Assembly (NCBI GenBank): GCA_018340805.1
Contig: JACMZG010001908.1
Location: forward strand, 18,185,095 to 18,249,094
Length of the DNA: 64,000 nucleotides
Reading direction: 5' to 3'
Source of the DNA: Microvelia longipes
Taxonomy: Eukaryota > Arthropoda > Insecta > Hemiptera > Veliidae
In this document: piece by piece, positions 13,736 through 64,000 of the stretch
How positions within the stretch are numbered: position 1 is the stretch's first letter
Layout of the letters: each line of letters begins with the position of its first letter
Program-made: the position numbers and the translations under genes
The notes under the pieces: generated by a model
What the model saw: the letters and a program-made list of their open reading frames with translations, nothing else
Database searches by the model: none
Told to the model about the DNA's origin: nothing

Positions 13736-13740
13736 ACAAA

Positions 13741-14484: not shown

Positions 14485-14514
14485 TATTTTTGAATAATAA
14501 TTCAAAAATAAAGT

Positions 14515-23482: not shown

Positions 23483-23616
23483 GAGGTCAACTGCAGGGTT
23501 ATGTTCCTCCATGGTAGTTTAATTAAATAAGGTCGAAGAAAATTATTTGATATTTTTGGTTATAGAATAATAATATTTAGGTTTAAGTAAATACAGATGT
23601 TTTTAAGGTACAAAAT

Positions 23617-24067: not shown

Positions 24068-24989
24068 CTTTCCACCTAAAAAACAATGTATTATCTGGTG
24101 AGGGTTCTAGAAAGGCCAAGATCGAAATATCCTCTCGCTTAAACACTATACTCGGAAGAACTCCACGTTCTATAACGTAGTTCTTTCTACATTCTATCTA
24201 CATAAAGTCATATCTTAGGCATTTCTTTAGTATAGGTGACCCCTTGGTTTTATCAACTTTGGTCATTTATTAACTGTGTCATTGGTACGTTATGATTAAT
24301 GAATATTAAAACAGAGGGACCTTCTATTCTAAATAATTACCAACTTAATATAGTTTTTATATTAAATTACATTAACCGAAGGTCTATATTGATTTGATTC
24401 TAATAATCGACACCAAAGTCAATGATTCATTGAAATACCTTCTTGATTGTTACATCACTTTATTTATTCTTTGTTATAAACTTGTACTGATAGTAACTAT
24501 CTGCGATGCCTTCCCCAACACCTATACATGACTACGGTTAACTCAATGTTTAACTAGAAAAATGTTTAGATTTTAGACATAATGATGTTGGACTTCTTAT
24601 TTTGGTTGTTTATAACAAAGCATTATGTATTCAAATTTTGTTAATTTAATTTATGATATGTTTATATAATACTGTTTGTTTTAGACAATTTCCTCTATTA
24701 TATGGTAAAGTGATAAGAATGAAACCTGTTGCCTCGCCTCTCTGTAGTTCAGTGTGATATCAGTATTTACTCGGATAGGATTTAGCTCAAGTTGTTGAAA
24801 GCTAAATATTTCGATGATATTGTCGTAACCTATTGGTTGAGAGTTTTATGAATTAAATTTGAATTGCAATCAAGCGAATTGATTTTTGTGTTGCAAATAA
24901 TTATGAATTTGTATAGCACTAGTTTTTTTAGTGAATAGTTATTAATTTATGAGGAAGTGGATTTGTTTTAATAATTATTGATTAACGGA

Positions 24990-30508: not shown

Positions 30509-33329
30509 TTAATTTAAGATGCTAATGACATTTTTTAAGGTTTTTATGGAAGGTACATCTTCTAATTTAACACTAAGACGATTAAAGCTCTGAACTGATC
30601 GAACCACAGGAGAAATATTGGACAGTTGACTAGAATAGAGATGTCTACCAGACCTACGACCAGGAGGTAAAATAGTGACCTCATTAAGGACACGAGTACA
30701 TAAGATATTACCAGATAGGAGATTGGTCATAAATAAAGCTTCGTAAGCAGTTCTTCTTTTACATAAAGACTCAAGTTTTAACTTTATGCAAAACCTTTCG
30801 TATGAATAGAAGCATTTATGAAAAAAATAACGAAAGTACACTGTTCTGATAAAAATACGTTGAACATTTTCTAATTGATTTGAGCGAGTTAAGTTGAGAT
30901 TATTCCAAATGACGACAGAATATTCTAAAGAGGACGAACAAGAGCAACATAGAGACGTACACAAACAATCAAGAGATAGACCATTAGAGACAGAACGAAC
31001 TAAACCTAAACAACGAAGAGCCTTTGAAACTATGAGATCAACATGGCTGTGAAAGTGAGTTTAGTATCGAGCAATACACCAAATCATTTACCGTGGACAC
31101 TTGTTTCAAGTTAGTGCCAAATAACGCATAGCAAGTAGGTATGGGGTTGGTACGACGCGAGAAAGATATAAAAACAGTTTTTTCAAAGTTTAAACTTCAT
31201 CTTATTAAGTCTAGCCATAAAAGAATACTGTTAATATTATACTGAACGAAATTTGAATCAGATTTTGAATCTATTGGCCAAAATATCTTCAGGTCATCTG
31301 CAAACATAGAAAATTCAGTGCTTATGAAATAGGAAAGATCATTTATGAAGAGTGAAAACAAGATTGGTCCAAGGACAGAGCCTTGGTGGACACCGGAAGT
31401 AATATGAAACGAATCGGAATAAGCATTGCCTAACTTCACTCTACATACCCTATTAGTCAGGTAACTTTCAAACCAATCAACAAGTTGAGAATTACGTAAA
31501 AACAGGGAGAGTTTATACAACAGAATTTGGTGATCAACAAGGTCGAACGCCTTGCTAAAATCGAAATAAATAGAGTCCACCTGCTTTCCCTTTATAATCA
31601 AAGGAACTATAAAAGAAAGATAATCTGCAAGATTAGTGGTGGTAGATCGATTCTTGCGGAATCCATGCTGGTTTAGATTAAGGTGAGGTTCAACATAAGG
31701 GACTAAGAAGGATCGTACAACTCTCTCAAATACCTTACAAAAAATATTGTTTAAAGAAATAGGCCTATAATTGGATGGAAGACAACGATCGCCTTTTTTA
31801 TGGATGGGAACAATTAGGGCTTCATTCCAGAGTTTAGGAAACGTAGCAGTGGATAAAGACTTATTAAAGATAAAAGAAAGAATTGGAGCTAGCACGTGAG
31901 CTAGGCTTTTAACAACAAAGGATGGTACATTATCCGGACCAGAACTTTTGGAAGATTTCAATTCTTTAATAGCCTTAACCACTGTTTCATTACTGATGGT
32001 AGGGATGATCAGATTATCACAAGGTTGATCAGGGTTTTTAGGAAAAGGATTGTAAGGAAAGGTAACAGGGATATTGGTGGAAGGACTGTAGACAGAGGAA
32101 AAGAATTTGGCAAAAATGTTAGCAGACATTATAGGATCAGTTGATATACATCCTGTTACTTCATCTTTCACTTCTGCTGGCATATTTTTTCTTCCACGTT
32201 TAGACGAAACAAACTTCCAAAATTGTGATGGATCATTCTTTAACGAGGCGTCTATCCTTTTATGATATAGCTGGCTCTCTTTACGATAGAGATGTTTATA
32301 TCTTCGACGGTATATTGATCCCATATTGTAATCAAAACGATTCTGAGATTTAGCATACTTTCTAAAATATTTATTCTTCTTTTTTATATAAAAACGCATT
32401 TTAGAGGTAAACCATACTGGAAACTTAGAAGTTTTAACATTCTTTACAGGTATATGCTTATCTAATGCATCGTTGAGCAGCATGTTAAGAGCTAACGCGT
32501 TTTTATTGACATCTATATCGTGAAAGACAGGACCCCAGTCTGCATTTTTAAGCGTTTCATATAGACCTACATAGTCACCCCTAGCATAATCTCGATAGCT
32601 ATATTCAGTTTTGACGTGTGTATTACAGGGCTCTATTACAAAGTTCAGAAGTAATGTAGGATGATGGTCGTCTTCAGGTACAAAAGGGTCAATACTTCGC
32701 ATAACATTAAGTCCATCCAGGGAAGATAGCACTAAGTCCAAGATTACAGAGTTTTTATTACCAATATGGTTGTACTGTAAAAGGTTAAGAGTATGACTGA
32801 ATTGTAATATAAGTTCAGCTCTATTTTTCTTAGGACCGTAAGAACCTATATACGAAAACTCAACCCAATTTATTTTAGGAGCATTAAAATCTCCTAGAAT
32901 AACTATTTCATAATCATTGCAGGTTATTGAGTCCATCAAAAACTGGAAATAGCTGAGTAACACAGCAGCAGAAATATTGTCTGGTATGTAGTGATTACCA
33001 ATCAAAACAGTCTTGCATCCTTGTAGGCGAAGTTCAATCCATACACACTCAACATATTTTTCTAGGTCTAATCTTCTCAAATAGGAAAGACTATTGACTA
33101 CAGCAGTGCAAACCCCACCGCCTTTTTCATTGATGGTTGAGTACTTCCTATCATTCCTCTCAACTTGAAAATGAGATGGAAAATAGCTAGAGTTAAGTGA
33201 AGTATCGTTGAACCAGGTTTCGGTTAAAAAAATTAAATCAACATCCGTTGCAGAAACTGCACAAAAAAAATCATTGGCCTTCGTTCTGAGGCCTCTACAG
33301 TTTTGATATTGAGTTTTTAACGAAGTCAT
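30509..33329 (-). pseudogene. LINE ORF2: endonuclease and reverse transcriptase, frame broken
   Basis: The open part (33329-31197, 710 codons) has an APE-type endonuclease at about residues 1-225: QNCRGL with Asn10, TETW with Glu37, and LGDFNAPKINW near 148. The reverse transcriptase spans about 440-700: SNYRPISL, NQHGFRKNRSTTTNL, FDFSKAFDLVDH, GVHQGSVLGPILFSLFINDL and the catalytic FADD near 676. A stop at 31197-31199 plus frameshifts interrupt the thumb region. The next frame resumes with NFEKTVFISFSRR and a final open piece (30964-30509) gives the C-terminus. An intact protein of about 900 residues would nick DNA and copy the RNA by target-primed reverse transcription. This copy cannot. 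Confidence 0.88.
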
Positions 33330-33394
33330 AGTAATAATGATAAAGTAACTACTCGGACTCTTCTGTATATAATTTGTCTGGGGTTAATTTACCA

Positions 33395-34477
33395 TTAAAG
33401 GGTTTGAACTAGTACGAATTTAGGCCAGATATCCGGAGATAGTAAAGAATTGAATAAATCATTTGGCAGTTCAATCCAAAAAGAGGCATAACTAGAATTT
33501 TTAGTTTTCAAACGTTCAATAGTTATAGAATCAGAGTTCTGAATATTAGGCCCATTCTCATCCTTGAGGAAAGATAACAAATCAGCTTTAGTTGTATCAG
33601 AATGTAGGCGAGAAACAAATATTGATCGTTTTCTTGGTGCAGCAGATAGTTTAGAAGATTGTGTATTTATACCATAAACAGCATTATTTTTTCTTCTATG
33701 CTTATGCTGAACGGGAATAAAATCATTTTTATTATTATTTGATCCATTAAAATCAGTTAAATTATACATAGAATTAGGAGCAGGAGAGGGAGTAATAAGA
33801 TGATCACAATAACCGGAGGCGACTCCTGTATGGAAATTTATGTATGGGTTTTTCCTAGCAGGCTCAGATGAGGAGGGGGGCTGGGCGGAGTCTTGATTAG
33901 TGGCGAAAGATGAGGTCTCAGAAGGGTTCAGTAACGAGGCTGGGGCCGTTCCTACAGGTAGAGGGCCTAGACCAGGCTTGTTTGCAACAGCAGTTGAATA
34001 AGATCGCGGAAGTCCATAACTAGCATTCATATTCATACTATTAGAGATAAAAGATTTGAGAGCAGCATTTTCCTCAGATAATTTACTAACAGTTTTAACG
34101 AGACCATTAACAACTAATGTCAAGTTACTCAGCATATTGTAACATTCAGCAGTATTTTTTAAAATTTCAGAAAGATAACCCTTATCAGGTAGGTTATTAT
34201 CCGGTTGTTTATTAGAACAACCGGGTTCTTTTTTCTCCATTTCCTTGACAGGGCGAATGGGAGTGTTAGAATCCTTGCTAGATTTACAAGATTTGCACTT
34301 CCATTTTCCTACTATCAGATCAAATTCATCAGGAGATATGCGATTATCAAAACAATCAGCATGAACAAAACATTGACAAGTAATACAGTCTAGAAAATTT
34401 TGAGCAGAGATAATAGGTTGATTACAGATATTGCAAATAGAATTGGCTTTTTTGACCTATCTTGTAGTAGGTCCCAT
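33395..34477 (-). pseudogene. LINE ORF1 with N-terminal PHD-like zinc finger, one nonsense codon
   Basis: From ATG at 34477 the frame reads six codons, then TAG at 34457-34459, then stays open to 33395. Just after the stop comes a cysteine-rich finger (CNIC...CITCQCFVHADC...WKCKSC) of PHD type, found in ORF1 of CR1-like LINEs. A coiled-coil-like segment (about 110-150) and a basic C-terminal half with KRSIFVSRLH, which resembles an RNA-binding fold, follow. The in-frame finger upstream of the first internal ATG (34240) argues that 34477 is the true start. ORF1 proteins bind the element RNA. The stop disables translation from this ATG. Confidence 0.75.
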
Positions 34478-45740: not shown

Positions 45741-45760
45741 TGGTTATGTTGGTCTTCTAG

Positions 45761-45882
45761 GCACTAGTTCAAGCCAGGACAGGGAGAAGGGAGATGAGGC
45801 TGATGAAGATGTCTGGTCAGAATGGGGTAGGATCGTTAACGACTGGGAGCAGACCAAAAAGAAAAATAATAACTATATCAAG
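45761..45882 (+). CDS. Evi5: EVI5 exon immediately before the TBC domain
   Basis: The acceptor TCTTCTAG ends at 45760 and the donor GTACTG starts at 45883. Two bases complete the split codon (Gly from the 28592 donor, or Ser from the 39720 donor), followed by 40 codons: TSSSQDREKGDEADEDVWSE then WGRIVNDWEQTKKKNNNYIK. The exon ends in phase 0. In EVI5 proteins WGRIVN.WE..KKK..  is followed directly by the TBC start, (K/R)GIPHHFRAIVW. That exon was not found downstream in the window. Confidence 0.87.
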
Positions 45883-48593: not shown

Positions 48594-48758
48594 TTATGCC
48601 ACACTACCAAAAGCCACTCTAGTCCTTCCTCTAGTAATATAAGTCTGTTTGGTTGTAACACTGTTGAAACTAAAGTTGAATTTTTTCTTTGGGTTAGAAG
48701 TCCAGCATTCGAAAGACCTTGGCTTGTAGAACGTGTTGTCCCCAGTAACTGGATCAGC
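48594..48758 (-). pseudogene. Degenerate duplicate of the deaminase terminal exon, copy 1
   Basis: Minus-strand reading gives ADPVTGDNTFYKPRSFECW, TSNPKKKFNFSF and a further open stretch to TAA at 48594-48596. It parallels ADPVTGDRLTFYKPRNYRG...NFS of the exon at 48945-49144. The frame is open, and a candidate acceptor AG would even give the right phase after 51302, but the acceptor lacks a pyrimidine tract. It may be a fossil or a rarely used alternative end. Confidence 0.65.
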
Positions 48759-48805
48759 TGATTTTTAGCGTATGTAATATTTGATGATAACAGTTGATTG
48801 TTTCA

Positions 48806-48905
48806 GCTCAAGTTATGTCTTTCCATTAAGTTATAAAGTCTACCTTACACCTTTATAAGGTCTCAGCTTATAGAACGTGATTATGTCTCTAGTAGCTGAA
48901 ATTAT
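48806..48905 (-). pseudogene. Degenerate duplicate of the deaminase terminal exon, copy 2
   Basis: Minus-strand reading gives ITFYKLRPYKGVR and then stops. The nucleotide sequence aligns with the last 100 bases of the exon at 48945 (TTTCAGCTCAAGTT...CTTATAGAACGTGA against TTTCAACTGAAGTT...GTTTGTAGAATGTCA). Spacing of the TFYK block between the three copies is about 143 bp, indicating a tandem triplication. Confidence 0.65.
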
Positions 48906-48917
48906 TTTATAGCTTGT

Positions 48918-48944: not shown

Positions 48945-49144
48945 TCAACTGAAGTTTAGTCTGTCCATAGAGTTTAAAAGCCCGTCGTTTCCCCTGTAAT
49001 TCCTTGGTTTGTAGAATGTCAGTCTATCACCAGTGACTGGATCAGCTGTTATCTCTTCTAATAGTATTTCTCTAGTGACTGCTGCCCACTCGCCATCCCA
49101 GTGATCTCTTTCCGGGTCTTCTATTACCTGAGCGTGAGTCATAC
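48945..49144 (-). CDS. Deaminase gene, last coding exon
   Basis: The acceptor CATTGCAG ends just before 49144. Two bases complete the Gly codon begun at 51302, then 65 codons run MTHAQVIEDPERDHWDGEWA, AVTREILLEE, ITADPVTGDRLTFYKPRNYR to a TGA at 48945-48947. No stop or indel interrupts it. It encodes the C-terminal helix and tail beyond the deaminase core. Two degraded copies of its second half follow downstream (48806-48905, 48594-48758). Whether the tail binds a partner or nucleic acid cannot be told. Confidence 0.8.
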
Positions 49145-49203
49145 CTGCAATGAAAGAAGATCAATTTTAAAGCTAAGGTTTAACTAAACAAATTACAGAG
49201 ATA

Positions 49204-49770
49204 ATGCTTTTTAAGGAAGTACATAGCTCAATAGATATTTTCCAAAAAATGCCCATTATACTAATTGTAGGTTGTCATCTGTACAATTTTAGCCACAATA
49301 GGCATACACATTGTTTAGTTATATATAATTTTATTAGTTTAATTTATTTTATTAACTTTATTTTATCTTTCCTTAAGGAAACAACTAATTTTATTTTAAA
49401 TTATATTTCTAGTTTTTTCGCTTTGTTAAAAAATCTAGTACAATAAAAGGCCATTCAACAATGAAGCAAATACCTAACTTCTTGTGATACTTTGCGTCGT
49501 CTCTTTCTCTCATTCGGCGCTGTAGCTTAAGCTAGAAGCCTCCTGAGCTATTGTATTGATTTATACAATATTTCCTTCTTTGTTTGTTTGGATATTTCAT
49601 TTTTTTTTTCTTTTTTCTCTTAAAATAGTTTTATGAACCTATATTTCGGAATATACAACCTAATTTTTTTACACAATATCATTTTATAAATAGAAGAATC
49701 TGTTTTATAGCTCTAATAAAAAAGGGGTCTTAGCTTATTTTCGTATTAAACGAAACCGTGAAAGGGTTGT
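49204..49770. other. Deaminase intron, unannotated part
   Basis: AT-rich. The 80-codon + ORF at 49204 is hydrophobic and AT-driven, without support. Confidence 0.5.
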
Positions 49771-49777
49771 TCTAGAA

Positions 49778-51169
49778 CAGAAATACGCAAAGTGTGGTCC
49801 GCTGACCCTTGGGGGTCCATATAACAATTTTCAGGGAGTCCGTAAGCCAACAAAAATTATGGCAACAAAAAATATAAAACATCTAAAGTTAGTGATATTA
49901 GCAATTTCCTTTTAACAATTTTTTTACTTTTCCTTATTTATACCGCAGGTATGTATTACTAATCCTCATTTATACCGTAGTTATATAGGAAAAGTATTGT
50001 AATTGGAAAAAATCCGAAACCAGAATGACACCGGATTTATCAGTTTCAGGTGTTTTTAAGTCCGCCTGAGTGGTTTTTACAAAGTCGTATGTGTGTGTGT
50101 GTGTTTCTGTGTAATCATCGTACCTCCTAGTGTATTTACACTAGAGAGTTGAAACTTCGTAAAAATCAGTCTACCGCTGCAGTTGTGCTATTCGGAAAAT
50201 AATTTGTATATGACGTCATTAACCTGCAATAATGACCCAGTGAAAACTTGGAAAAATCATAAAACGTGGAAAAATGATGCGATCTGATTTAAATTTAGTT
50301 CTCATGTAGCTATATGGTTAAGACTGACGTATGTGCCAGTCTTAATAGTTGTATCTTATTATCAGCATTAGTTCAATTTTTATCAAATGACTTGTGTACG
50401 TTTTTAAAAAATCGAAAAATAATCCAATTTAGTTGACATGGTATACTCTTGTATACCATAATAAATTTTTATTTATTATTATTTTTCACCCCATGTTTCG
50501 TTTCAATACGACAAGTATATCTTAGATTTTTGTATGATCATAACAGTTAAGCAGCATTGACTAAGGTCAGTCCTACATGGATGACCGCTGAGAATAAAAC
50601 GTGTTGCAGTATAAATTAGGAAAAAGGATGAGCGTAGTGAATCTGATGTAATAAGGAAAAGTTCCGAGGTACCCCAAACCCGATTTTTCATTTATCGATC
50701 TGAAAATAAATATTTTTGGTTACCAGTTTGCTATAATTTTAAATTGTATAATATTTAATTTTATACTAAAAAAATAAAAGGAACGCGATTAATTTTTTAA
50801 TCATTGAAATAATAACGAAGTATCTAATCTTTGATGCCAACATTCATCAGCTTGATTTAGCACCGACGTATGGGTATGGGTTACACCCATAGTATAAGTA
50901 TACGGTATGGGTTTTGGTTTAAAACTGTTTTTAATTATTTAATTCTTATTCGTAGTTAAAGTGTCCCGTATTTAAAGTCTTCAGTTTTTTTTTCATTTAT
51001 TTTTATTTCTTCAATTTATTAGCACGTTTTTATCATGAGTCGTTGGTTAAAAACAATTTCAGTAAAAATCCTGGTCTTGAAGATTTAAAATCAGATATGG
51101 TTGGGGGTCCAGCAAGTACCGTTAAGTCAAAAGGGGGTCCACAGAGCACTGAAAATTTGCGTTTTCTTG
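49778..51169. mobile_element. Non-autonomous hAT element, 1392 bp, with nested repeat
   Basis: Perfect 8-bp target duplications, TTCTAGAA, lie at 49770-49777 and 51170-51177. The ends CAGAAATACGCAAAGTGTGG (49778) and, inverted, CAAGAAAACGCAAATTTTC (51169 downward) are imperfect terminal inverted repeats; GTGGTCC and GGGGGTCC blocks follow inside both. No transposase frame is present. The composite repeat 49918-50695 was inserted into it later. It lies in the intron between the last two deaminase exons. Confidence 0.88.
49918..50695 (+). repeat. Family A plus 5S-like composite repeat, complete copy
   Basis: It starts with TTTTTACTTTTCCTTATTTATACCG and continues through the family A landmarks (TTCAGGTGTTTTTAAG at 50043, ATGACGTCATTAACCTGCAATAATGACC at 50210). 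It then has the TGTTTCGTTTCAATACGA block, the 5S-like module GATCATAACAGTTAAGCAGC...TGGATGACCGC (50535-50588), and the tail ending GTTCCGAGGTACCCCAAACC (50657-50677). It is bounded on both sides by hAT sequence, so its extent is well defined. The ends show short inverse similarity (ACTTTTCCTTATT against AATAAGGAAAAGT). Confidence 0.8.
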
Positions 51170-51301
51170 TTCTAGAACATATAACTAAGTTGTTGTGTTA
51201 TGCATTTGTTCATTTTAACACATTCTTCCTAATTTATAAGAAATCCGAGTGAGTATAAGAGTAATGGAATAAGCAGTTATAAAACTTAATTCTTCTTTTA
51301 C

Positions 51302-51525
51302 CTAATTTACTAGTAAGAATATCCCATTGTTCTCTTGACCAGGTACCAATGTCCACCATCGGATGTCTGGCTAATCTCGCCAATGCTCTGGCTTCTCTTG
51401 ATCTGTTATGTAGATACACAGATGTGAAATGGATCTGGAGCTTGATGTTGGTCGATGTGACTAGGTCTAATAACGAATCACTGCACTCGGCGCAAGGCGA
51501 CTGTGATAAATACATCTCCACCTCT
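51302..51525 (-). CDS. Deaminase exon with the PCAEC zinc motif
   Basis: The acceptor TGATTTTAG ends before 51525 and the donor GTAAAA follows 51302. One base completes Lys, then 74 codons: EVEMYLSQSPCAECSDSLLD, LVTSTNIKLQIHFTSVYLHN, RSREARALARLARHPMVDIG, TWSREQWDILTSKL, leaving one base. SPCAEC gives the two zinc cysteines. The following helix, the IHFTSVYL strand and the ARLA..MVDIG strand match the AID/APOBEC order. The WSREQW segment corresponds to the aromatic helix that follows. All the shared ORFs on the opposite strand are shadows. Confidence 0.85.
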
Positions 51526-51529
51526 CTAA

Positions 51530-52340
51530 AATCATAAAAATTACGTAAATTTTGGTGCTGTTAGATAGTTCATTTTACTTCTTTGGTGAATGGTGCATAA
51601 AGAAGTATTTAAAATGTTTAGAGTTAAAATGATATTTTGATTAAAGGGCTCTGTATTCATTTTGATTAAAGAAGTTTCAATTTAATATTTATGATTATGA
51701 TATTTCGTTTTCCTGAAGCAATTTATATTATCATTAATTGAACTCAAACAAATATAATTATTAAAACTCGTTTGCACACTTTTTCTTTTGCTAGAAGTAT
51801 TAATTTAGGATAAAAGCTCGGTAATGTCTGTTATAAAGATATTAGTACCAAACTGAGGGCGTTAGGACTTTATAGCGTAGTGTATTGTAACTCACTCTTA
51901 TCACGCTATCTGATCCTTTTAATGAGTTCTAGAAATAAATAGTCTTGACACGCCTTATTTTTGTGAGATTTCTCTCTAATTTTGAGGAGAAATGAACCTT
52001 TTAATTTTTCGGCGACAGGCATTAATGGTATTAGTATTGAGAGGTTGTGCCTAGGAAAAGTGCATATCTAGCATAGTCGAGATATACTCTTGTCAATTCC
52101 TAGATATGACTACAGCAGTACCCAGGTTTTTCTGGGACTAATGCAGTCTCTTAGATAGCAATTGTATGCTTCTCAGTATTATCTTGGATGTTTCCTAGGT
52201 ACTATTTTATTCCAGTCCATAGTTTGAAAATAATATATTATTAAATTTTGCTGATAGTTGGAACTTTCGGCAGAATATTTCCATCTTTCTATAAAATCAT
52301 GACTCTCCCACTATTGTTTTCAATAAGCCAATCTTTAAAC
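51530..52340. other. Deaminase intron, 819 bp
   Basis: It lies between the two catalytic exons. AT-rich, with no recognised repeat. Confidence 0.5.
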
Positions 52341-52344
52341 TTAC

Positions 52345-52595
52345 TTTGGTTTAACCTCAGTTATCTCCTTAATGAGATGTTTTTCAACGTGTCCATACTT
52401 TCCGTTCAGCTTGCAAGCTCCAGCCCATGCCTCTCTGACAGCTTCTAGTCCAGGAAGGAGCATTTTAGCGTAACCAAACGTAGTCACAACGAGTCTTTTG
52501 CCATCAGGTTCTCCCCGAGCGTTGTGTAGGTAGGATGAGTAGATCTCTTCGTTTGTCGCCCACTCTTCAGTTACTAACTGCTGCATTTCTGGATC
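52345..52595 (-). CDS. Deaminase exon with the HVE catalytic motif
   Basis: The acceptor TTTGTTTAG ends before 52595 and the donor GTAAGT follows 52345. The exon starts in phase 0 and encodes 83 codons plus two bases, from DPEMQQLVTEEWATNEEIYS through LHNARGEPDGKRLVVTTFGY, AKMLLPGLEA and CKLNGKYGHVEKHLIKEITE. HVE supplies the zinc histidine and the proton-shuttling glutamate, and GHVEKHLIKEI forms the first core helix. The preceding RLVVTTFGYAK strand and the long helical insert (LPGLEAVREAWAGACKLN) lie before it. The insert is longer than in AID. Intact and clearly coding. Confidence 0.85.
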
Positions 52596-52619
52596 CTAAA
52601 CAAATGTATGCTTTATAGA

Positions 52620-53235
52620 ATAAATAAGACTCCTAAAATTGTTTAAGTAGTTGTCATTACATTTTTTTATATAATTAAGCTTCAACCATGAGAGTATGTA
52701 TAAAATAATAGATCAACACTCTTCTTAGGAATCTTAATCAGCCAAATAAAGATCAATATTACAAATATTAAATCTATATTTAATATTTATTTATTATTTA
52801 ATAAAGAGTTAATACCGATTTGTATGTATCAATAGATATATCAATATAAATAGATATCAATAAATACATCAATAGTAGATTAATAGTAAAGACCAAATAG
52901 TAAATCAATAGTCCACCTACGATTTTTTATCAACCAAATATACCCGCAACCTTTTGCCTGGAGAGACTTAAGCTTTCAACTACCATTTTTTTCAATAAAT
53001 TTATAAAACCATTGGAAAAATCGTTTATTTTTATGATAAAGTGTAAGCAACTTGAACAATATCTTATTATTTATAAACGAACAACTATTTACAAACTGTT
53101 ATACAAAATTAAGTAGCTTCAAACACTTCGCTCGATTCTTCCTGTTGGTGAAATTTGATCTTTAAAAGAAAGTTTAGTGACATCTCGGGTCATCATTCTA
53201 TTAATTTTATAAATATATAAAATAAGCCTACCATA
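52620..53235. other. Deaminase large intron, AT-rich start
   Basis: Short ATCAATAG-type repetition at 52800-52915. Nothing else was recognised. Confidence 0.5.
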
Positions 53236-53239
53236 CTAA

Positions 53240-53365
53240 ATAATGGTAGGATTGGTAAGGCGGCTAAATGGTCTAGATTGCTATATTTTATAACCTTTCT
53301 GATGATAAACTGCTCTGTTTGTTCTGGTTAGAGTTCGAATCCTAGTCTGGATGGTTTCTTTTTAA
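53240..53365 (+). repeat. tRNA-like sequence, probably SINE head or tRNA pseudogene
   Basis: GGCTAAATGGTCTAGATTGC resembles an A box of Leu/Ser-type tRNA, and GAGTTCGAATCCTAGTCTGG (53330-53349) is a good B box. The spacing is longer than in a tRNA without a long variable arm, and the T-arm and acceptor do not pair well. An active tRNA gene is therefore unlikely. Confidence 0.45.
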
Positions 53366-53369
53366 CTAG

Positions 53370-54455
53370 TTTTTTTGGTGCATAGTTTGTTATTAGTGTT
53401 TTACCAGCGTTAGTAAACATTTCCCTAATAGCTTAATATACTTGGCTACTAAATATCCTTGGTGCTACTTAATATAAATTGAACATTTCGTTGCTTCTCT
53501 CTTATTTGCTACTAGTATCACTAATAAAAATTGGAATACTAATTTATCCTAATGATAATAAGTTTTTACCTACTTTGGACTCTTGGTGCTTTATAGATAA
53601 GATAAGTGCTTCATTACTTAACAATTAAAACATCATATGTACCTGTTTTTTTCACTGCTTGAAATTTTGCTGAATCGTCTTAATTTAGTAACCGCACTTT
53701 GGTCACACCGGAATAGGGTTTATTATTTTTTAATGCTTATAATTCTATTTTGATTTCAAACTTCTGATTAAATTAAATTTTTAAGTTTCTTTGGTAGCAA
53801 CATTGATTTAATAGAACTCACATGTTTTCATTATGTTGAGTAGACTAGCTTAACACTTTATTTTGTAATTAACATTATACAAGGTTAAGTAATTCTATTT
53901 AAAATTATGAATAAATGAATTTAACTCTATGAATGAATGAATATTTATTGGATCATTAGTTTGTTTCACATTATCTTTATAAAACATTTAACGCATAGAA
54001 AAGATAAAAATTACTTATTAATATATATAAAAACACTACAAGCACGAGTTTTAACTGAACTGCATGTGCCACTGTTTTTTCTAATTATGCTAGTTTCGTT
54101 AATTATTATTTTATCTATCATCGTTTATTTAATTAATTAAATTAAAATTCATAGTAATAATTTTAATGCAATATGACAAAAAGAATAAATTGTATGAAAA
54201 TTACTTTTAAAATCAAGATATATGCATATGAATATGACTTGGGATGAAATAAAATTCTTTTATTTATGATAAATATCTTGCCATTTTTTTATGATTCCAT
54301 AAAAATTGTTTCAGATTCTATAGAAGCTCTCAATTGTTAAAAAATAAATTATTTGGTTCGACTCCTGCTTCTTCTGATAATTTTTTGTCGTTTTGTTCAC
54401 CTTAAGAAATCCGCTAATCATTTTAACAATTTGATTCGAACAAACTGAGCTTTAA
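53370..54455. other. Deaminase large intron, nothing recognised
   Basis: AT-rich. The hydrophobic + ORF at 53937-54140 has no support. Confidence 0.45.
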
Positions 54456-54462
54456 ATTCTTG

Positions 54463-54677
54463 TTAAAGGAGTAAATAATGTGCATAGTCTGTTATAGCAA
54501 ATTGTTAAAGTAGTGAATTATGTGCACGCAGTCTGTTATAGCAAATTTTTAAAGGAGTGAATTATGTGCATAATCTGTTATAGCATATAGTTAAAGGAGT
54601 GAATTATGTGCATAGTGTGTTATAGCAAATTGTTAAAGGAGTGAATTATGTGCACGCAGTCTGTTATAGCAAATTAA
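54463..54677. repeat. Minisatellite, 42-45-bp unit, five copies
   Basis: GTTAAAGGAGTGAATTATGTGCATAGTCTGTTATAGCAAATT repeats five times. Copies alternate between a GCATAG and a GCACGCAG version, suggesting a two-unit higher-order step. Confidence 0.9.
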
Positions 54678-55965
54678 AAAATCTCGGGACTTTTTCTTAA
54701 CATACCGAATTCACTACGCTCAGCTCTCTTCTTCGGAATGGTTCCGCTCGTCCTCAGAACATTAAAAATCACATCTCATTAGCGATTTTTTCAAAGAAAA
54801 TTCGCTAAAACCACCAAATTTTACTAAACACGCCTTCGGACTCGCTTCGCTTTCGGTTTGATAATAAATACATTAACAAATAACAACACCAAAATCTCTC
54901 CACAAGACCTTTATTAAAACCAGAGCCGGCTTTCGACCTCACGATCATCATCAGTGCCAGAGTGTTGAAGAAAAAAAATCTTAGTCTGACTTTTTAGGCT
55001 AGAAAGTCTATAAGAATCCTATATGACTCTGCCTAAAAAGTCAGACTAGGATTCTCCTTCTTCAACTCTCCGGCACTGATGATGATCGTGAGGTCGAAAG
55101 CCGGCTCTGGTTTTAATAAAGGTTTTGTGGAGAGATTTTGATGTTGTTGTTTTTAGCTGTGTTTACTCCACTGCTCAGTGTTCTGTTAATAAATACATTA
55201 GTTTTATTCCCTGCGGTCACCCATCCATTAATTGACCTCGCTCGATGCAGCTTAACTTTTATGATACAACATAAAACATAGATATACTTGACTTATTGAA
55301 ACAAAACTTAGTATACTAATTTATTACGTTAAGAATACGCTTGTACCAAATTTGAACTCAATTTGATTTTTTTATTTTTAATTTTTTTTTAAAAAACGTA
55401 TTCAAGTTATTCCATAAAATTGAACTAATGCTGATAATGAGATGAAACTGATGTTAGTCTTATACGTGGCTGCATGCGTGCCAAATCTCAAACCGATTAA
55501 TAATTTTTCCGCGTTTTATGAATTTTCCATATTTTTTCTGTCAAAAATATATATATATGTATGCAAATATGTATATATGTAAATATATTATATTATATAC
55601 TATATACTGATTCATATATAATGTAATAAAATTAATATAATGTATAAAATTAATTAAAAATATGTACAATTAAAAAAACTTTGAATGGCGTTACATAAAA
55701 ATCATTTTCCGGATATCGTAACTAGACCCAAAGATGATTTTTGTAGTAAGTTTCAACTTTCTAGTATAAATGTATGTACTGGAGATACGATAATAACAGA
55801 AACACACAAATACAGTGAGACAAAACACCTATGTGTGAAAACACATAAAGGGCCTTAAAACATCTAAAACGGATAATGTCGGTAACATCTCGGATATAGA
55901 TTTTTCGCTAGCAGCATAATTTTCCAATAAATTATGCCTACGGTATAAATGAGGAAAAGTAAAAT
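54677..55965 (-). repeat. Family A plus 5S-like composite repeat, with a nested element
   Basis: On the minus strand: family A from 55965 (CTTTTCCTCATTTATACCG) to about 55390, the 5S-like module (55265-55213, AAGTTAAGCTGC...GGATGGGTGACCGC), then the tail with CGAAGCGAGTCCGAA (about 54850) ending in a CCGAGATTTTTT block at 54680. The palindromic element 54876-55186 split it. The order matches 49918-50695. Confidence 0.78.
54876..55186. mobile_element. Inverted-repeat element with hammerhead-like motif, copy 4
   Basis: A perfect 14-bp duplication, TAATAAATACATTA, lies at 54862-54875 and 55187-55200, inside the composite repeat. The arms (about 54890-55005 and 55030-55135) contain CAAAATCTCTCCACAA, the motif, and a GACTTTTTAGGC stem. 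On + the motif is CTGATGA (55076-55082), then GATC-GTGA-GGTC and GAAA (55096-55099); its complement is at 54926-54958. A 45-nt tail follows the palindrome on the right. Element boundaries are certain because the target is a known repeat. Confidence 0.82.
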
Positions 55966-56319
55966 ATATGCATTTTCTTTGTAAAATCTTATTCTTAGTA
56001 AAGTCGAAGTGTTGCTGAGTATAGACAATAACACATTAACCGAATTTTTAACTTAAAGCCAACATTTGTAATTTACGTAATAAGCTGTAAGTATAAATTC
56101 CAGTATTTTCTTGATAAATGTAAGTCGTGATTCGGTATGAATGTGTAACAGATTACGAATAACAAGGTCAGCATGTTTGGAAAAAGACAATAATTAGTTC
56201 GTTGACTCAATTACACTATGGGTATTACTACTTATATTTACTGTAATTTAAGTTTGTTACGTGTCTTTTATTTACTCTTTACGAACTTATTTGAAATTTT
56301 AAGCGTATAGACAACTATT

Positions 56320-56815
56320 CGTATTATAGTATAAACAATTTTAAAAAGTTAAGTATAATTCATAATCATATTACAGTATGAACTATTTTAATTGATTACG
56401 TATGATTCTTATTCGTATTACAGTATTATCTATTTTCATTGATAAAGTATAATTCTTATTCGTATTATAGTATTAACTGTTTTAATTGACTAATTATAAT
56501 TCTTATGCGTTTTACAGTATTAAGATTAATTATAATTCTTATGCGTTTTACAGTATTAACTATTTTAATTGATTAAGTATAATTCTTATGCGTTTTACAG
56601 TATTAACTATTTTAATTGTTAAGTATAATTCTTATGCGTTTACAGTATTAACTTTTTTAATTGATTAAGTATAATTCTTATGCGTTTTACAGTATTAACT
56701 ATTTTAATTGATTAAGTATAATTCTTATGCGTTTTACAGTATTAACTATTTTAATTGATTAAGTATAATTCTTATTCGTATTATAGTATTAACTATTTTA
56801 TTTAATTAATAAATC
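56320..56815. repeat. Minisatellite, about 47-bp unit, ten copies
   Basis: GATTAAGTATAATTCTTATGCGTTTTACAGTATTAACTATTTTAATT repeats with small changes. The leftmost units are the most diverged. Confidence 0.9.
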
Positions 56816-57265
56816 ATGAAATATTATAAAAGTATATATTAAATTATTATACATTTTATTAATTAATATATCATATAAGTAAATATTAAATAAAACTATG
56901 TAATGAAACGTAATTATCAATTTTTTAGTGTTAATTAATATTGAAAGATATTATGGTTAATTATATTTTTTTTATAGATGAACAAAAATAGTTCAAAGAT
57001 TTCAAAGAACAACAAAAGAATGTGACAAAAAATTAAACGTAAAATATGGATTCCTAAACAGCTACTATTAAGTAGTATCTGTTAAACCTGCTACTGATTA
57101 TTAATTTTATTAATGTAGTAACTTAAACAACTACCTATATGATTACTGCTATTAATGTAGTGACTTTAACAACTACATATATAATTACTACTGTTAATGT
57201 GGTAACTTTAACTACTACCAGTGGCGTAGCCAGGATTTAATTTCGGGAGGGGCTGAATGTTAAAC

Positions 57266-57389
<124 letters not shown>

Positions 57390-57794
57390 TTGTATATTGT
57401 TCAATGTTTTCAAATTATTTTTATATCTCTCAATTTCATTGTATATTTTTAGGGTTTCGAAGATAATCTTCGAAACCCTTATACTTTCTGTCGAGCGTCT
57501 GTCTGTCCGATTTCTCATCTCAGGAACTACAATAGCTAGGAAGTTGAAACTTGGTATACATGTGTAACTATTTTATCCAACAACAGGAAAAATATAGCCA
57601 ACTATCTCACACGCGCATCTGTCGATTTATGAGCGAATGCGCATATTCGCAAAAAATAAATATTTTTTTGAAAAATCATGTGGTTGATACCCCACATGTA
57701 TTGTAGGTACCGATGGGTAGAACACAAATATGCATCGCTTTTTCAAAATGGCGGCTATTACACCCGCCAAAAATATCGAAAACCCCCAAAAAAT

Positions 57795-59050
57795 CACATA
57801 AAGGCGAGCGAAGCGAGCCCTAGAATATTATGTTATGTCTTTACTCTATGCTATAAAATTAGGTTCTGATAAACATATACAAAAAGGCGAGCGAAGCGAG
57901 CCCATGAATTTCATGCCTTGTTTTAAGTGTTTCTCTTAAAGTAGGTATTGACAAACAAGCACATAAAGGCGAGCGATGCGAGCCCTTGAAGTTTATTTTA
58001 TGTTTTAAATTTTTTTCTATATTTAGGTATCGACGAAAGTTTTATAAGCGAGCGAAGCGAGCCCTAGAATGTTATGTAAAAGTTTGATTCAATACTTTAA
58101 AATTGGCTAGTACCAAACAAGCACCTAAAGGCGAGCGAAGCGAGCCCTAGAATATTATGTTATGTCTTAACTCTATGCTATAAAGTTAGGTTCTAACAAA
58201 CGTATACAAAAAGGCGAGCGAAGCGAGCCCTAGAATTTTATGTTATGTCTTTACTCTATGCTATAAAATTAGGTTCTGATAAACATATACAAAAAGCGAG
58301 CGAAGCGAGGCCATGAATAAAATAGGCCTTGTTTTAAATGTTTCTCTTATAGTAGATATTGACAAACAAGCACATAAAGGCGAGCGAAGCCAGCCCTAGT
58401 ATTGTATGGTTATTTTTATTATATACTCTTAAGTAGGTACTGATATGCAAACACATAATGGCGAGCGAATCGAGCCCTTGAATTTTTTTTTACGATTTAA
58501 ATTTTTCTCTAAAATTAGGTAGCGACAAACAAACATATATAGGCCAGCGAAGCAAGCCCATAATATTTAATAAAAATTTGAATTTATAGTTTAAATTGGC
58601 TAGTAGCAAGTTTATAATGGCGAGCCTCAATGTATATGTATAATGTTTTTTTTATTTCATACTTATAAGAAGGAAATGATAAGCAAACACATAAAGGCGA
58701 GTGAAGCAAGCCCTAGAACTTCATGTTGTATTATAATTATTTTTCCTAAAATCAGTACTAACAGACATATATAGGCGAGCGAAATGAGCCCTAGTATATT
58801 TGGTAAAATTATATTTTTACCCTGCGAAATTTGCTTATAACAAACATACAAATGAAATGAGCACTTATATATTTTGTTATCTTTTCAGTGTAGATTCTAA
58901 ATTAGGTAATGATTTCTGATACACAGAAACGCAAGCGTAGCGAGCCGTGGAATATTATGTTATAACTTATTTATTTTTTCTAAAATTAGGTATCGACAAA
59001 TACTAACATATAAGCGATTGAAGCGAGGCGTAGAATATTAAGTATATTGT
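57795..59050. repeat. 82-bp satellite array inside the hAT element
   Basis: The core GGCGAGCGAAGCGAGCCC recurs at about 57803, 57886, 57968, 58048 and onward at 80-83-bp steps, fading towards 59010. Between cores lies AT-rich sequence with TTAGGTACTGACAAACAAACATATA. Divergence rises to the right. Confidence 0.9.
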
Positions 59051-59892
59051 ATGATTGTATAGTATTAATACATTTTATTTATGAAAATATCTGAGAAACC
59101 CTTATAATGCTTACAAAGCAAGCACTTTGACGGATTTTTTTTTATATTATGATATTTATATTATAAGTTTATTGTTAAAAAATATATGTAATTTATTATT
59201 TTTATATATTTTTTATAGGTTTTATTTTTTTTTCACTCATTTATTGCGGGTTTAGGTTATGTAAAAATTTCGGGGGGGCTGAAGCCCCCTCAGCCCCCCC
59301 CTGGCTACGCCACTGACTACTACATATATAATTACTAGTATTAATGTAGTAACTTTAACAACTACATATATAAATATTACTATTCAGTGTATAAACCCTA
59401 TTATAGATTTTATAAGTAAATAGATATTACCTTAAAAATGTAATGAAGATATGGAAAATTATAATTTAGCTAAGTGTACAGATGCAGCCCGCAGATGTTC
59501 TCGAGGACAAGTAATGGGTCTGTCTGGATATCTGCGATGTACTCTCAGTCCACTTATCTCTAAGATACCCTTTTGTAACCCTTTGAGGGGGGTATACATG
59601 TTTTATCTTAGCTTAAAATTTGTATCTTAACGGAATTGTTTTTATCTGGTTATTTAACCCGAAAAATTAGGTTTATCTTTTTGTATTGCTGAAAGTCTGG
59701 ATATTGAACTATGACTAATGCATATTTGTTTCACAAACTTTTTAAAATTTTGCTTACCTTTCTCCTAAAAGGGAGAGAAAGCATTGCATTAGCGACACGG
59801 TTTTTTCTTATCTAATGTCGAGTATCAGTTTCTAATGATCCCAATAATCCTGGTTTGTATACATTGATTTTTTTAATATGCGCTGTATTTGT

Positions 59893-60387
59893 CAACATTT
59901 TTACATTTCCTTATTTATACCGTAGGTATATAGAAAAGTATTACGTTTGCAAAAAATTCGAAACCGTCACCGGAAATATTAGGTGTTTTTAAGACCTGCT
60001 GAGTTGTTTTTACATAGTTGTCTATCTGTATGTGTGTGTGTTTGTCTGTTATCATCGTTGCTTATAGCGTATTTATGCTAGAGAGCTGAAACTTAGTATT
60101 AAAATCAATCTCTTGGTCAAGTTGTATTATTCGTACAATATTTATTTATGACGTCATTAACCCATTAAATTCATATAACAAGGAAAATGTTTTGATCGTG
60201 TTGAGATTTGGAACGCATGTAAGTGATACATAAGACAAATAAATGTACCAAGTTTCATGTCATTATTAGCATTAGTCCAAATTTTTAGTTCCAAATGTCA
60301 AAAATCAATATAAGTTGAAATCTGCTACCAGTGTATTTCTTTACTTAATAAATATGTTTACTAAGTTTCGTTTTAATTACGTCATAA

Positions 60388-60486
<99 letters not shown>

Positions 60487-60755
60487 TTTGCGTGTGTGTG
60501 GTTTTTGTCAGATCATAAAAGTTAAGCTACAGTGACCAAGGTCAGTCCCTGGTTGTATGACCGCCAGGGGAATGAAACGGATGTATTTTACTATTTAAGG
60601 ACGAGGGAAACTAGTCTGAAGAAGTGTTGCAGTATCAATTTGGCGAATTGTATCATCTGAGAGCGAGCGAAGCGAGTCCGAAGTAGGTATTGTGAGCGTA
60701 ACGGATCCGATGTAGTAAAGAAAATTTTCAAAGTACCCAGTAACCGAATTTTCAA
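59893..60755 (+). repeat. Family A plus 5S-like composite repeat, third copy
   Basis: Family A runs from TTTCCTTATTTATACCGTAGG (59908) through ATGACGTCATTAACCC (60148) to about 60345. An (AT)n run (60388-60486) follows, then the 5S-like module GATCATAAAAGTTAAGC...ATGACCGCC (60511-60564) and the tail with GAGCGAGCGAAGCGAGTCCGAAG (about 60661) to 60755. Confidence 0.78.
60388..60486. repeat. (AT)n microsatellite
   Basis: About 100 bp of AT repeats located where the family A part meets the 5S-like module. Confidence 0.95.
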
Positions 60756-60824
60756 TATACCCTACAGCTCAAACGGCTGGTTTGATTATAATGAAGTTTG
60801 TTCTCAAAAATATACATTATTTCC

Positions 60825-60890
60825 TTATAGCCTGTCCAAAGTTGGGGGAAAAAAGTTCCGAGGTACCCCGTTCCCGATTTCTTAAATAAA
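60825..60890 (+). repeat. Composite repeat tail fragment
   Basis: GTTCCGAGGTACCCCGTTCCCGATTT (60856-60881) is the terminal block of the 5S-like composite, without the rest. Confidence 0.6.
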
Positions 60891-61494
60891 AAAATGGATT
60901 CCAAATTTCCCATCGGTTAAACCTTTAACTAAACGGATTAATTAGTGGCTACAAATTGTTTAAGGTTGAATAAACCGGTTTTACCCTGTTAAAGTTCTAT
61001 CGTGGTTTGAGAGTTAAACTATAGCTGGGGGTATATTCGAGAAGAGAATGGGGTTGGAATGTCGGTCTAGAGGTCTAGGGTTAGGGTTGATGGATTTTAT
61101 GGTTGAATCAGTTCCTGAGGAATGGGTGGTTAAGCAAGGCAATTGATTAACTAGAGGAAATTGAAATGAAAATCCGTGTTTTTCTGAAGTTCTAAACACA
61201 TTATTAAGCGGGTTTTCCTTTTAAGCATTGCCTTAGGACCGTCTAATCTTGCAGAGAAATTCCATTGGACGCATGGTTTTTTTTACTTTTACTTAATTTG
61301 ATCACTTAAGTACTTATTATTACTTACATATTTTATTGTTAACATAAGTATCTATCTACTTAGTATTATTTAGTATATTGTACTTTAATGTTTATTTTCT
61401 AATTTTGTATTAATACTTAATATTTATGTTATTACTCAAGATGATTTAAAATATATACTTATAAAATATGTAATTTAAATAGAGACGCAAGGGT

Positions 61495-61625
61495 CTCTAC
61501 AGTTCAATTGTCTTTCTCTGTAGTTCTCGAATTGTATATTTTGAGGACGAGTAAAGCGAGTCCGATGTAGGGAAGACTCAATGTGATAAGGAAAAGTTCC
61601 GAGGTACCCCGTACCCGTTTTTTTA
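61495..61625 (+). repeat. Composite repeat tail fragment
   Basis: GAGGACGAGTAAAGCGAGTCCGATG and GTTCCGAGGTACCCCGTACCC followed by a T run match the tail of the composite. Family A in the opposite orientation starts right after it. Confidence 0.65.
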
Positions 61626-61639
61626 AAATTATATTTTTA

Positions 61640-62425
61640 CTTTTTCTCGCCTACTATCTAGGAAATGTTTATTGTTTTTGGTTTTATGTAGGACTATACG
61701 CGTGCTAATTTTCAAATCATTTTTTAAGTTTTATGAATTGTTAGGTCATTAATTATAGTACGTTCACACACACTTCTAGATCCGCGGATCGTATTTGGAT
61801 ACGATCTCTCAATACGGTAATATTAGCTATTGAACCTAGCGGAGGGGATCCGATCGCATACGCTAGAACTAGGGAGATGGAATCTAAATGGATCCCCCGA
61901 TACGCTGTATGTACCTTTAGAGACGATCGTATTTAACGAATAACCTTCTCGTCGAACTTTTTAATTTATTTTATTTCACTTCAATATTACCGTTTTTGAT
62001 CAAATAACTTTTGGAATATTATTTTTTTTTTTAGTGTAACTTTATTATTATGCAAAGAAATCACAATTTAATTAAATATATTTTTTGTGTTAAACTTCCT
62101 TATAACCAAGAGTGAACCTGCACTATAAAAGACACGATGTTTTGGCGGGATCAGTTATCACGTAATCTCACTCGATCGACTAAACAAAGACGCTGTAAGA
62201 ACCATGAAGTTAGTTGATCGTATTGCATCCGTATCCAATACGATCGCCTGTTAAATACGCTGTGTGTGCGTAGTAAATGATGGTTAATGACGTCATAATA
62301 TTATTTTCCCCGAAAGTAAAATAAACCTAACGATTGATTTTGTACTAAGTTTCAATTCTCCAGCATAAACACACTGAGAGCTGCGACACTCACACGTATA
62401 CTACAAGTAAAGAAATATATATACA
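61640..62425 (-). repeat. Repeat family A copy split by a small element
   Basis: ACTATACGCGTGCTAATTTTCAAATC and GTTTTATGAATTG (61691-61742) lie left of the insertion, and GGTTAATGACGTCATAATA (62282) and the ACTAAGTTTCAATTCTCCAGC block lie right. Removing 61761-62275 restores the family A order. Confidence 0.7.
61761..62270. mobile_element. MITE-like element, 510 bp
   Basis: It interrupts family A with TAGTA on both sides (61756-61760 and 62271-62275). The ends CGTTCACACACAC and, inverted, CGCACACACAGCG are imperfect inverted repeats. Inverse GATCGTAT/ATACGATC blocks recur inside both ends. It carries a TATAAAAGACACGATG stretch (about 62121). There is no transposase. The superfamily is unclear; the 5-bp duplication may include one end base. 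Confidence 0.7.
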
Positions 62426-62429
62426 AATT

Positions 62430-63140
62430 AGGGAAACTTATATACTGACACATGTAACAAAATGCAGACCTGTCCGATCAGCTGATAGCTGGCTCAAAAA
62501 TAAAAAATAGCTAAAATTAAAATAACTGCGCATGCGTCTTTTCGGATTTAGGGTTTTTTATTTAATTTTATTGGCAACCCTGATAACATTACGTGAGTTT
62601 TACATTTTATTGTATTTTCGTACTTTAATGTGTACGTGATAATTTAATGATTTTGTATTAAATTCTGATAAGTAATTGTTATAATAATTTAGTAAAAGAA
62701 AAAGAGACACTATAGTAAAGATAAACCTCATGTTTTTATTAAGATTTTGAAAAAAATGCAGACGACAGTGTATCGCCTTAAAATTACGATTGCTTTTATT
62801 ACATTAAAAAATAAGTTAAATTTGTTAAATTACTAATTACAATTAATATTTGAACGGGAAAAAACAAATATCATTTGCAAAAATGTATCAAGTTAAGTAG
62901 TACACACGAAAAAAAAAGTTAAATTAGCCGGTTGTTTTAAGTCATTTAAACGAACCTAGTATTTCAAGATTTGGACTTAAACCACTATTGGATGTGGTAA
63001 AATGTATTTCTTACACAAATTATTAACATTTTAAACTGAACTGTTCAAATAAATGCAATAAAAACAAAAAAATTTAGTACCGTAAATAGTTTGTTTACCT
63101 TTACTATAGGGTAAAACAAAATGGCCGCGGCCATAGGAAA
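62430..63140. other. Deaminase large intron, nothing recognised
   Basis: AT-rich. No exon between 52596 and 63960 with phase-0 ends was found. Confidence 0.45.
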
Positions 63141-63330
63141 ATTTGAGGAGGTCTGACAGAAATCGCGTTTGTTTCCCTACTTGGTTTATATATTACTTTA
63201 ACTACAAGACTCGTACACACACGCATTCAGATAGAAAACTTAAGTAATTCAGTTTTTCGGATTTTTATTACGAACACAATACTTTTCCTTTGTAATTACA
63301 GTATAGACGAGAAAAAGTAAATATAAAAAT
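63140..63330 (-). repeat. Repeat family A fragment
   Basis: GTACACACACGCATTCAGA, TTTTTCGGATTTTTATTACGAACACAATACTTTTCC and ACGAGAAAAAGTAAA are the 5' part of family A in reverse. Confidence 0.55.
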
Positions 63331-63828
63331 TAAATTAAAAATAATAAAACGATGCCAAATGAGAAAAATTGTTATTTAGATAAAATTGATAAATATTGTT
63401 GGATAAAATGTGATTGAAAACTGGAAAATTGTTGGAATACCGTGTGGAAAACTGGGTTTCTTTTTAAGTTATCACTGGTCGATTTGAAAATCCTACATCT
63501 AGCTCTATATGGGCGGAATGATGCTGAAATCTCCCTACACAAGAGACAGATCCATGCTTCAAATAAAATACTGTTCTCTCCCTTCACACTGAAATAAATT
63601 TTCTTGTTCTTTCTTAAAATAATTTACTTTTTACTATTAGTGGCATTCGTTATTAGAAGCACAATAATGATTTGTTTCGAACACGGTTTGTTTATGTTCT
63701 AATATTTATAACTTAACTGAAATAAAATGATTAGTATCTTGACAACACGACCTAACCAATGAGCGTGTTTATTTAGTTTCTGCGCTACCAGCAATGCCAC
63801 TTAGTCACTTGTTTCCTATGTATGTATA

Positions 63829-63895
63829 TATCGGAAACACGCATTCCAAAGGAAATTCGCTCGGCCTACTGAACGCGGTGTCAGAATTATTTTAT
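63829..63895. repeat. Family B arm, single
   Basis: CGGAAACACGCATTCCAAAGGAAATTCGC...ACGCGGTGTCAGAATTATTTT matches one arm of the palindromes at 4350 and 13741. Confidence 0.65.
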
Positions 63896-63960
63896 CTAAT
63901 TAAAAACACCTGTAGCATAAAGTTCATAGCAAGGTCAACGCGGCTCTGCGTATAACTTAC

Positions 63961-64000
63961 CTTATACACCAGTGATCCCATGATAACTTGTGGTTTACAA
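63961..64000 (-). CDS. Deaminase exon, cut by window edge
   Basis: On the minus strand the open frame CKPQVIMGSLVYK ends at 63961 with the donor GTAAGT right after it, in phase 0. It joins DPEMQQLV of the exon at 52345-52595 without a split codon. The exon continues beyond the window, so the start codon, any signal peptide and the N-terminal domain are unknown. The intron is 11.4 kb. Confidence 0.65.

What the first reader, a model, noticed from the sequence alone, without database searches (positions are those of the whole stretch)
48945..64000. An AID/APOBEC-like cytidine deaminase gene in an arthropod genome
Four minus-strand exons splice in perfect phase into a protein with HVE, about 22 residues, then PCAEC, followed by the strand and helix order seen after the zinc site in AID/APOBEC proteins (IHFTSVYL, ARLA, GTWSREQW). 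Seen in the sequence: motifs, splice sites, phases. Established: this pattern defines the zinc-dependent deaminase fold, and members of the AID/APOBEC-like group edit single-stranded nucleic acids in vertebrates. Comparative surveys have reported scattered members in invertebrates, including arthropods, but function there is largely unknown. Inference: a nucleic-acid editing defence factor against viruses or retroelements. The long helical insert before HVE (LPGLEAVREAWAGACKLN) is unusual.
Basis: partly seen in the sequence, partly recalled or inferred. Interest (0 to 1): 0.9.

Follow-up and report, generated by a model that had tools for sequence, protein, structure and literature searches.

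The report
Single-copy AID/APOBEC-like deaminase in an insect
An insect chromosome carries one apparently intact gene for an enzyme of the family that vertebrates use to mutate antibodies and viruses; members have been reported outside vertebrates, but what this one does is untested.

Summary
Three minus-strand exons (52595-52345, 51525-51302, 49144-48945) splice in phase into 224 residues with HVE, 22 residues, then PCAEC, ending at a stop. Eight Pfam families, all AID/APOBEC, exceed their cut-offs; the general cytidine/CMP deaminase family does not. Exon 3 folded alone matches AID/APOBEC structures in all 50 listed rows of two searches, at modest scores. The fourth (first) exon, MGSLVYK at 63981-63961, is only a candidate. 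The host is very probably an insect: 43 odorant-receptor (7tm_6) matches over cut-off in its 664.6 Mb genome. Exons 2, 3 and 4 each match once in that genome. The gene lies antisense inside an 18.7 kb intron of an EVI5-like gene on a 64 Mb contig, so contamination is unlikely. The protein search found no relative. Most likely it is an intracellular zinc-dependent cytidine deaminase of single-stranded nucleic acid used against viruses or retroelements; family membership is well supported, activity and role are inferred. Arthropod members are already in print: a new, divergent member of a known kind.

The parts
52345..52595 (-). Exon 2 (first well-supported exon): N-terminal part of the deaminase domain, long stretch before the active site, HVE motif; acceptor tttgtttag|GATCC, donor CCAAA|gtaagt, ends in phase 2
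   Evidence: one match in the whole genome at E <= 10
51302..51525 (-). Exon 3: PCAEC zinc site and the strand/helix series after it; acceptor gattttag|AGAGG, donor TTAG|gtaaaa, ends in phase 1
   Evidence: one match in the whole genome at E <= 0.001, only place where the SNAD4 profile rings
48945..49144 (-). Exon 4: C-terminal part and stop codon TGA; acceptor ttcattgcag|GTATG
   Evidence: one match in the whole genome at E <= 10
63961..63981 (-). Candidate exon 1, MGSLVYK followed by gtaagt, phase 0 (tentative)
   Evidence: best donor of 3 candidates; sequence seen
48640..48910 (-). Apparent degenerate tandem copies of the end of exon 4: one at about 48775-48640 (tblastn E 0.008), a second at about 48910-48790 seen only in an alignment without statistics
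45754..45882 (+). Exon of an EVI5-like TBC-domain gene on the opposite strand; its next exon starts at about 64583 (just outside the window), so the deaminase exons lie within this intron

Best explanation
A single-copy, apparently intact insect gene for a single-domain AID/APOBEC-like zinc-dependent cytidine deaminase of about 224-231 residues. Shown: spliceable exons, intact zinc ligands (H, C, C) and catalytic glutamate, family match, predicted fold of the catalytic half. Inferred from the family: H and the two C hold zinc, the glutamate shuttles protons, and C is turned into U in single-stranded DNA or RNA. Inferred further: with no signal peptide found, it works inside the cell, most likely as an innate mutator of viral or retroelement nucleic acid. 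Separate estimates: AID/APOBEC-like gene 0.95; expressed and catalytically active 0.65; defence role 0.45.
Against: No transcript was available. In the printed alignments the Trp of the WSPC motif (4 of 4 stretches) is Gln here, which could change or weaken base binding. The 22 residues between HVE and PCAEC are fewer than the 24-36 printed for vertebrate members. No Foldseek E-value reaches 0.001 and Z stays below 8, where the tool warns that a common arrangement may suffice; only 2 of 5 AlphaFold2 models were confident. Exon 2 alone gave no usable model. No homologue in the protein search. The SNAD4 profile also rings, below cut-off, in 2 of 14 control genomes. Single copy, without the expansion typical of arms-race genes.
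Confidence: 0.6

Rival explanations
1. A catalytically weak or inactive AID/APOBEC-fold protein that binds nucleic acid, working as APOBEC2 or APOBEC4 are thought to.
For: Gln in place of the WSPC tryptophan; APOBEC4, APOBEC4_like and APOBEC2 profiles are among those above cut-off; a 2026 review says that APOBEC4 and at least one other member (its name outside the passage) are reported inactive but bind DNA (PMC12993061, passage).
Against: The zinc ligands and the catalytic glutamate are intact.
Confidence: 0.2
2. A C-to-U editor of the insect's own mRNAs rather than a defence factor.
For: Single copy without lineage expansion suits a housekeeping or tissue function; APOBEC1 profile just above cut-off, 29.1 of 27 bits.
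Against: No direct evidence; that no relative was found (a search limited to shared short words) would suit fast, conflict-driven evolution better (inference).
Confidence: 0.15
3. A decaying or unexpressed gene: the exons are remnants.
For: Ordinary donor after exon 3 (90th percentile) and acceptor before exon 2 (85th); apparent degenerate copies of the last exon just downstream; surrounded by repeats.
Against: Three open exons in phase with clear coding bias.
Confidence: 0.1
4. Another deaminase of the same superfamily (free cytidine/CMP deaminase, tRNA adenosine deaminase, or a recently acquired bacterial deaminase toxin).
For: dCMP_cyt_deam_1 at E 0.025, below cut-off; TIGR01355 cytidine deaminase at E 0.12, far below cut-off.
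Against: Eight AID/APOBEC families score 29 to 46 bits against 14.9 for dCMP_cyt_deam_1; no bacterial relative found; introns; the listed fold rows are all AID/APOBEC.
Confidence: 0.03

Closest known systems
SNAD4 (Pfam PF18750), secreted AID/APOBEC-like deaminases
   Same: Highest Pfam score (46 bits, E 6.7e-12); HxE/PCxxC core.
   Different: SNADs are described by a signal peptide (abstract start), and almost all SNAD1 proteins examined by a C-terminal cluster of three cysteines (PMC11004436, passages); here the only cysteines are C68, C102 and C105 of the 231-residue model and no hydrophobic N-terminus was found. SNAD4 is said to have been identified only in sponges.
Classical AID/APOBEC enzymes (AID, APOBEC1-4)
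   Same: APOBEC_N and APOBEC1-4 profiles above cut-off; predicted fold of the catalytic half; one domain of about AID size.
   Different: AID profile itself below cut-off (24.0 of 27.3 bits); Trp to Gln in the WSPC motif; 26 residues between FGY and HVE, against 7 in human AID (recalled); calculated pI 5.5.
Invertebrate AID-like enzymes of sea urchin and Lingula (SpAIDL, LaAIDL)
   Same: Invertebrate members with the catalytic motif; LaAIDL1 active in E. coli (PMC5956068).
   Different: Nine loci in the sea urchin, two domains in LaAIDL1; here one single-domain gene in an insect. Sequences not compared.
NAD1 / NAD2 (novel AID/APOBEC clades of Pfam)
   Same: NAD1 40.4 bits, above cut-off.
   Different: NAD2 below cut-off (24.2 of 27 bits); clade-defining features not tested.

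Membership tests
AID/APOBEC-like deaminases (as a group) | HxE and PCxxC motifs | tested here: met
   HVE and PCAEC in one spliced frame
AID/APOBEC-like deaminases (as a group) | Profile match above curated cut-off | tested here: met
   8 AID/APOBEC Pfam families above cut-off, no other deaminase family
AID/APOBEC-like deaminases (as a group) | Strand-helix order after the zinc site, with helix 4 between strands 4 and 5 | tested here: met
AID/APOBEC-like deaminases (as a group) | C-to-U deamination of single-stranded nucleic acid | not testable with these tools
   needs biochemistry
Vertebrate-type APOBEC_N domain as worded in PMC5956068 | H[AVS]E, 24-36 residues, PCxxC | tested here: not met
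   22 residues between E and P; the APOBEC_N profile is nevertheless above cut-off
Classical vertebrate AID/APOBEC | Tryptophan in the WSPC motif (seen in 4 of 4 printed stretches; that it is general is recalled) | tested here: not met
   SQSPC
SNAD (secreted) | Signal peptide | tested here: inconclusive
   None in the candidate N-terminus (highest 12-residue hydropathy in the first 40 residues -0.24), but exon 1 is tentative
SNAD (secreted) | C-terminal cluster of three cysteines (stated for almost all SNAD1) | tested here: not met
   No cysteine after C105
Free cytidine/CMP deaminases | PF00383 above cut-off | tested here: not met
   14.9 of 25 bits

The most novel reading that the evidence does not exclude
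An insect lineage keeps a private, fast-evolving AID/APOBEC-like clade with a re-built active-site wall (Gln for Trp) and a long substrate loop, acting as a mutator restriction factor against retroelements or viruses in a group of animals usually thought (recalled) to rely on RNA interference and to do without nucleic-acid mutators.
Probability: 0.25. Interest if true: 0.8.

Novelty: new member of a known kind. Interest (0 to 1): 0.5.

Why it matters
Insects are experimentally accessible invertebrates, and a single-copy AID/APOBEC-like gene in one of them would let the role of these mutators outside vertebrates be tested by knock-out, editing profiles and retroelement activity. It would also show how far the active site can be remodelled. 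If it proves inactive, it is an instructive case of a retained fold with changed function.

Tried and rejected
Paralogues: none in the 281.5 kb neighbourhood except a degenerate copy of the last exon, and no second match genome-wide for exons 2, 3 and 4 or the SNAD4 profile (2 candidates scored, 1 match; 2 of 14 control genomes rang below cut-off). The tool scores only its best candidates. The APOBEC_N search of the own genome did not complete, so a paralogue seen only by that or another profile is not excluded. Homologues by protein search: none up to E 10 for the joined protein (676 candidates) or the exon 3 ORF (3 candidates). Viral contigs: one stretch matched a peptide pattern, none was a relative; two repeat patterns gave nothing. 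Rfam at gathering thresholds and tRNA scans of the window were empty. Pfam scan of 122 of the 126 listed ORFs (of 134 that passed the length and composition filter, 8 in the LINE region were left out, then the exon 3 ORF and three repeat-rich ORFs; exons 2 and 4 were included): one weak, unrelated match (GLV1-2, E 0.0072). A micro-exon around 49520-49470 was considered by eye and dropped because its phases do not fit. Taxon by LINE relatives: best hit 38% identical, nearly all unnamed, not informative. Taxon by looking at the ends of 13 contigs for a mitochondrial one: nothing gained. Krishnan et al. 2018, the survey of these clades, is not held; its content is known here only through citing papers and recall. 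Papers: in nine answered searches none of the listed titles and abstract starts (capped lists) describes an insect AID/APOBEC-like gene. Passages only were seen of PMC11004436, PMC13402138, PMC13428168, PMC8201067, PMC10354150, PMC3482391, PMC6757416 and PMC12993061.

Full report
What is there. On the minus strand three exons, 52595-52345, 51525-51302 and 49144-48945, join in phase (phase 2, then phase 1) into an open frame of 224 codons that ends in TGA. HVE and PCAEC are 22 residues apart. The exons have 44-46% G+C, the two introns 30%. With codon usage taken from neighbouring EVI5-like exons and a phosphatase-like ORF, the true frame is the best of three in every exon, and 0, 0.4% and 0.06% of 5000 random 222-base stretches of the window score as high as exons 2, 3 and 4. 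Splice signals range from strong (exon 4 acceptor, 99.9th percentile of AG sites of the strand; exon 2 donor, 98th of GT sites) to ordinary (exon 2 acceptor 85th, exon 3 acceptor 92nd, exon 3 donor 90th) (the weights in that script are my own approximations).

The first exon. Between 52.6 and 64.0 kb three ATG-to-donor candidates in phase 0 scored 4 or more; the best, 63981-63961, reads MGSLVYK and is followed by gtaagt. It would make a protein of 231 residues. I treat it as tentative: it is tiny, 11.4 kb away, and the ATG four codons into exon 2 could serve as start.

Which clade. SNAD4 scores highest, but by only about five bits. SNADs are described as secreted (abstract start), and almost all SNAD1 proteins examined have a C-terminal three-cysteine cluster (passages of PMC11004436). 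Here no cysteine follows C105 and no hydrophobic N-terminus was found, so I do not file it as a SNAD. The tryptophan of the WSPC motif, present in all four printed PDB stretches, is glutamine here, and the 22-residue spacing is below the 24-36 printed for the vertebrate-type domain, so I do not file it as a classical vertebrate-type enzyme either. It is best called a divergent AID/APOBEC-like deaminase of unassigned clade.

Which organism. The window lies in a 664.6 Mb assembly of 1470 contigs, on a contig of 64.2 Mb. The genome has 43 matches to the odorant-receptor family 7tm_6, all over cut-off though several hold stops, with 0 of 14 control genomes ringing (that this family belongs to insects is recalled, and the nature of the controls is not known to me). 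The order is not known.

Surroundings. The gene lies antisense within an intron, about 45883-64582, of a gene whose exons read DVWSEWGRIVNDWEQTKKKNNNYIK and EMVRKGVPQHFRGMVWQLL; its pieces match RabGAP-TBC at 5.2e-44 and RABGAP1 structures; the name EVI5-like is recalled. Being embedded in a host gene on a chromosome-size contig, the deaminase is unlikely to be a contaminant. Exons 2, 3 and 4 have one match each in the whole genome (E up to 10 for exons 2 and 4, 0.001 for exon 3), and the SNAD4 profile rings only at exon 3 (it also rings, below cut-off, in 2 of 14 control genomes). The APOBEC_N search did not complete. Degenerate copies of the end of exon 4 seem to follow the stop codon. A LINE-type retroelement with reverse transcriptase and endonuclease lies at 30.5-34.4 kb.

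How it probably works. By established knowledge of the family, H and the two C hold zinc, the glutamate activates water, and cytidine becomes uridine in single-stranded DNA or RNA. A cellular mutator of viral or retroelement nucleic acid is the likeliest role. The brachiopod enzyme LaAIDL1 mutates E. coli reporters, and sea-urchin and brachiopod genes are most expressed in the digestive tract (PMC5956068: Results part 1 of 3 and the brachiopod section; sea-urchin activity from the abstract). None of this has been shown for this gene.

Novelty. [quoted passage not shown] the Krishnan survey itself is not held. Nothing like this protein was found among about 5.8 billion sequences, a search limited to relatives that share short exact words. 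So it is a new and divergent member of a known kind, interesting mainly because an insect gene is experimentally accessible.

Noticed in passing
window 30509-34456, minus strand: A LINE-type retroelement: one ORF with reverse transcriptase and endonuclease domains (RVT_1 4.1e-24), a separate upstream ORF with a Cys/His-rich N-terminus and a separate 3' ORF, both without a Pfam match; apparently interrupted.
   Followed up: partly
window 57750-58735: A minisatellite of about 82 bases whose units carry a motif like AAAGGCGAGCGAAGCGAGCCC; its pattern was not found in viral contigs.
   Followed up: partly
window 48640-48910: Apparent degenerate tandem copies of the end of the deaminase's last exon, possibly former alternative last exons.
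   Followed up: partly
window 197-296, 50618-50717, 60682-60781: A dispersed repeat, two copies of which carry AAAAGTTCCGAGGTAC; a related stretch lies in L002 near 2440.
   Followed up: no
L022 591-1064: An intron-free open frame that looks like a low molecular weight tyrosine phosphatase, possibly a retrocopy (seen; identity recalled, not searched).
   Followed up: no
window 13711-14514 and 23613-24071: Long inverted repeats (341 nt arms, 89%; 218 nt arms, 98%), possible foldback elements.
   Followed up: no
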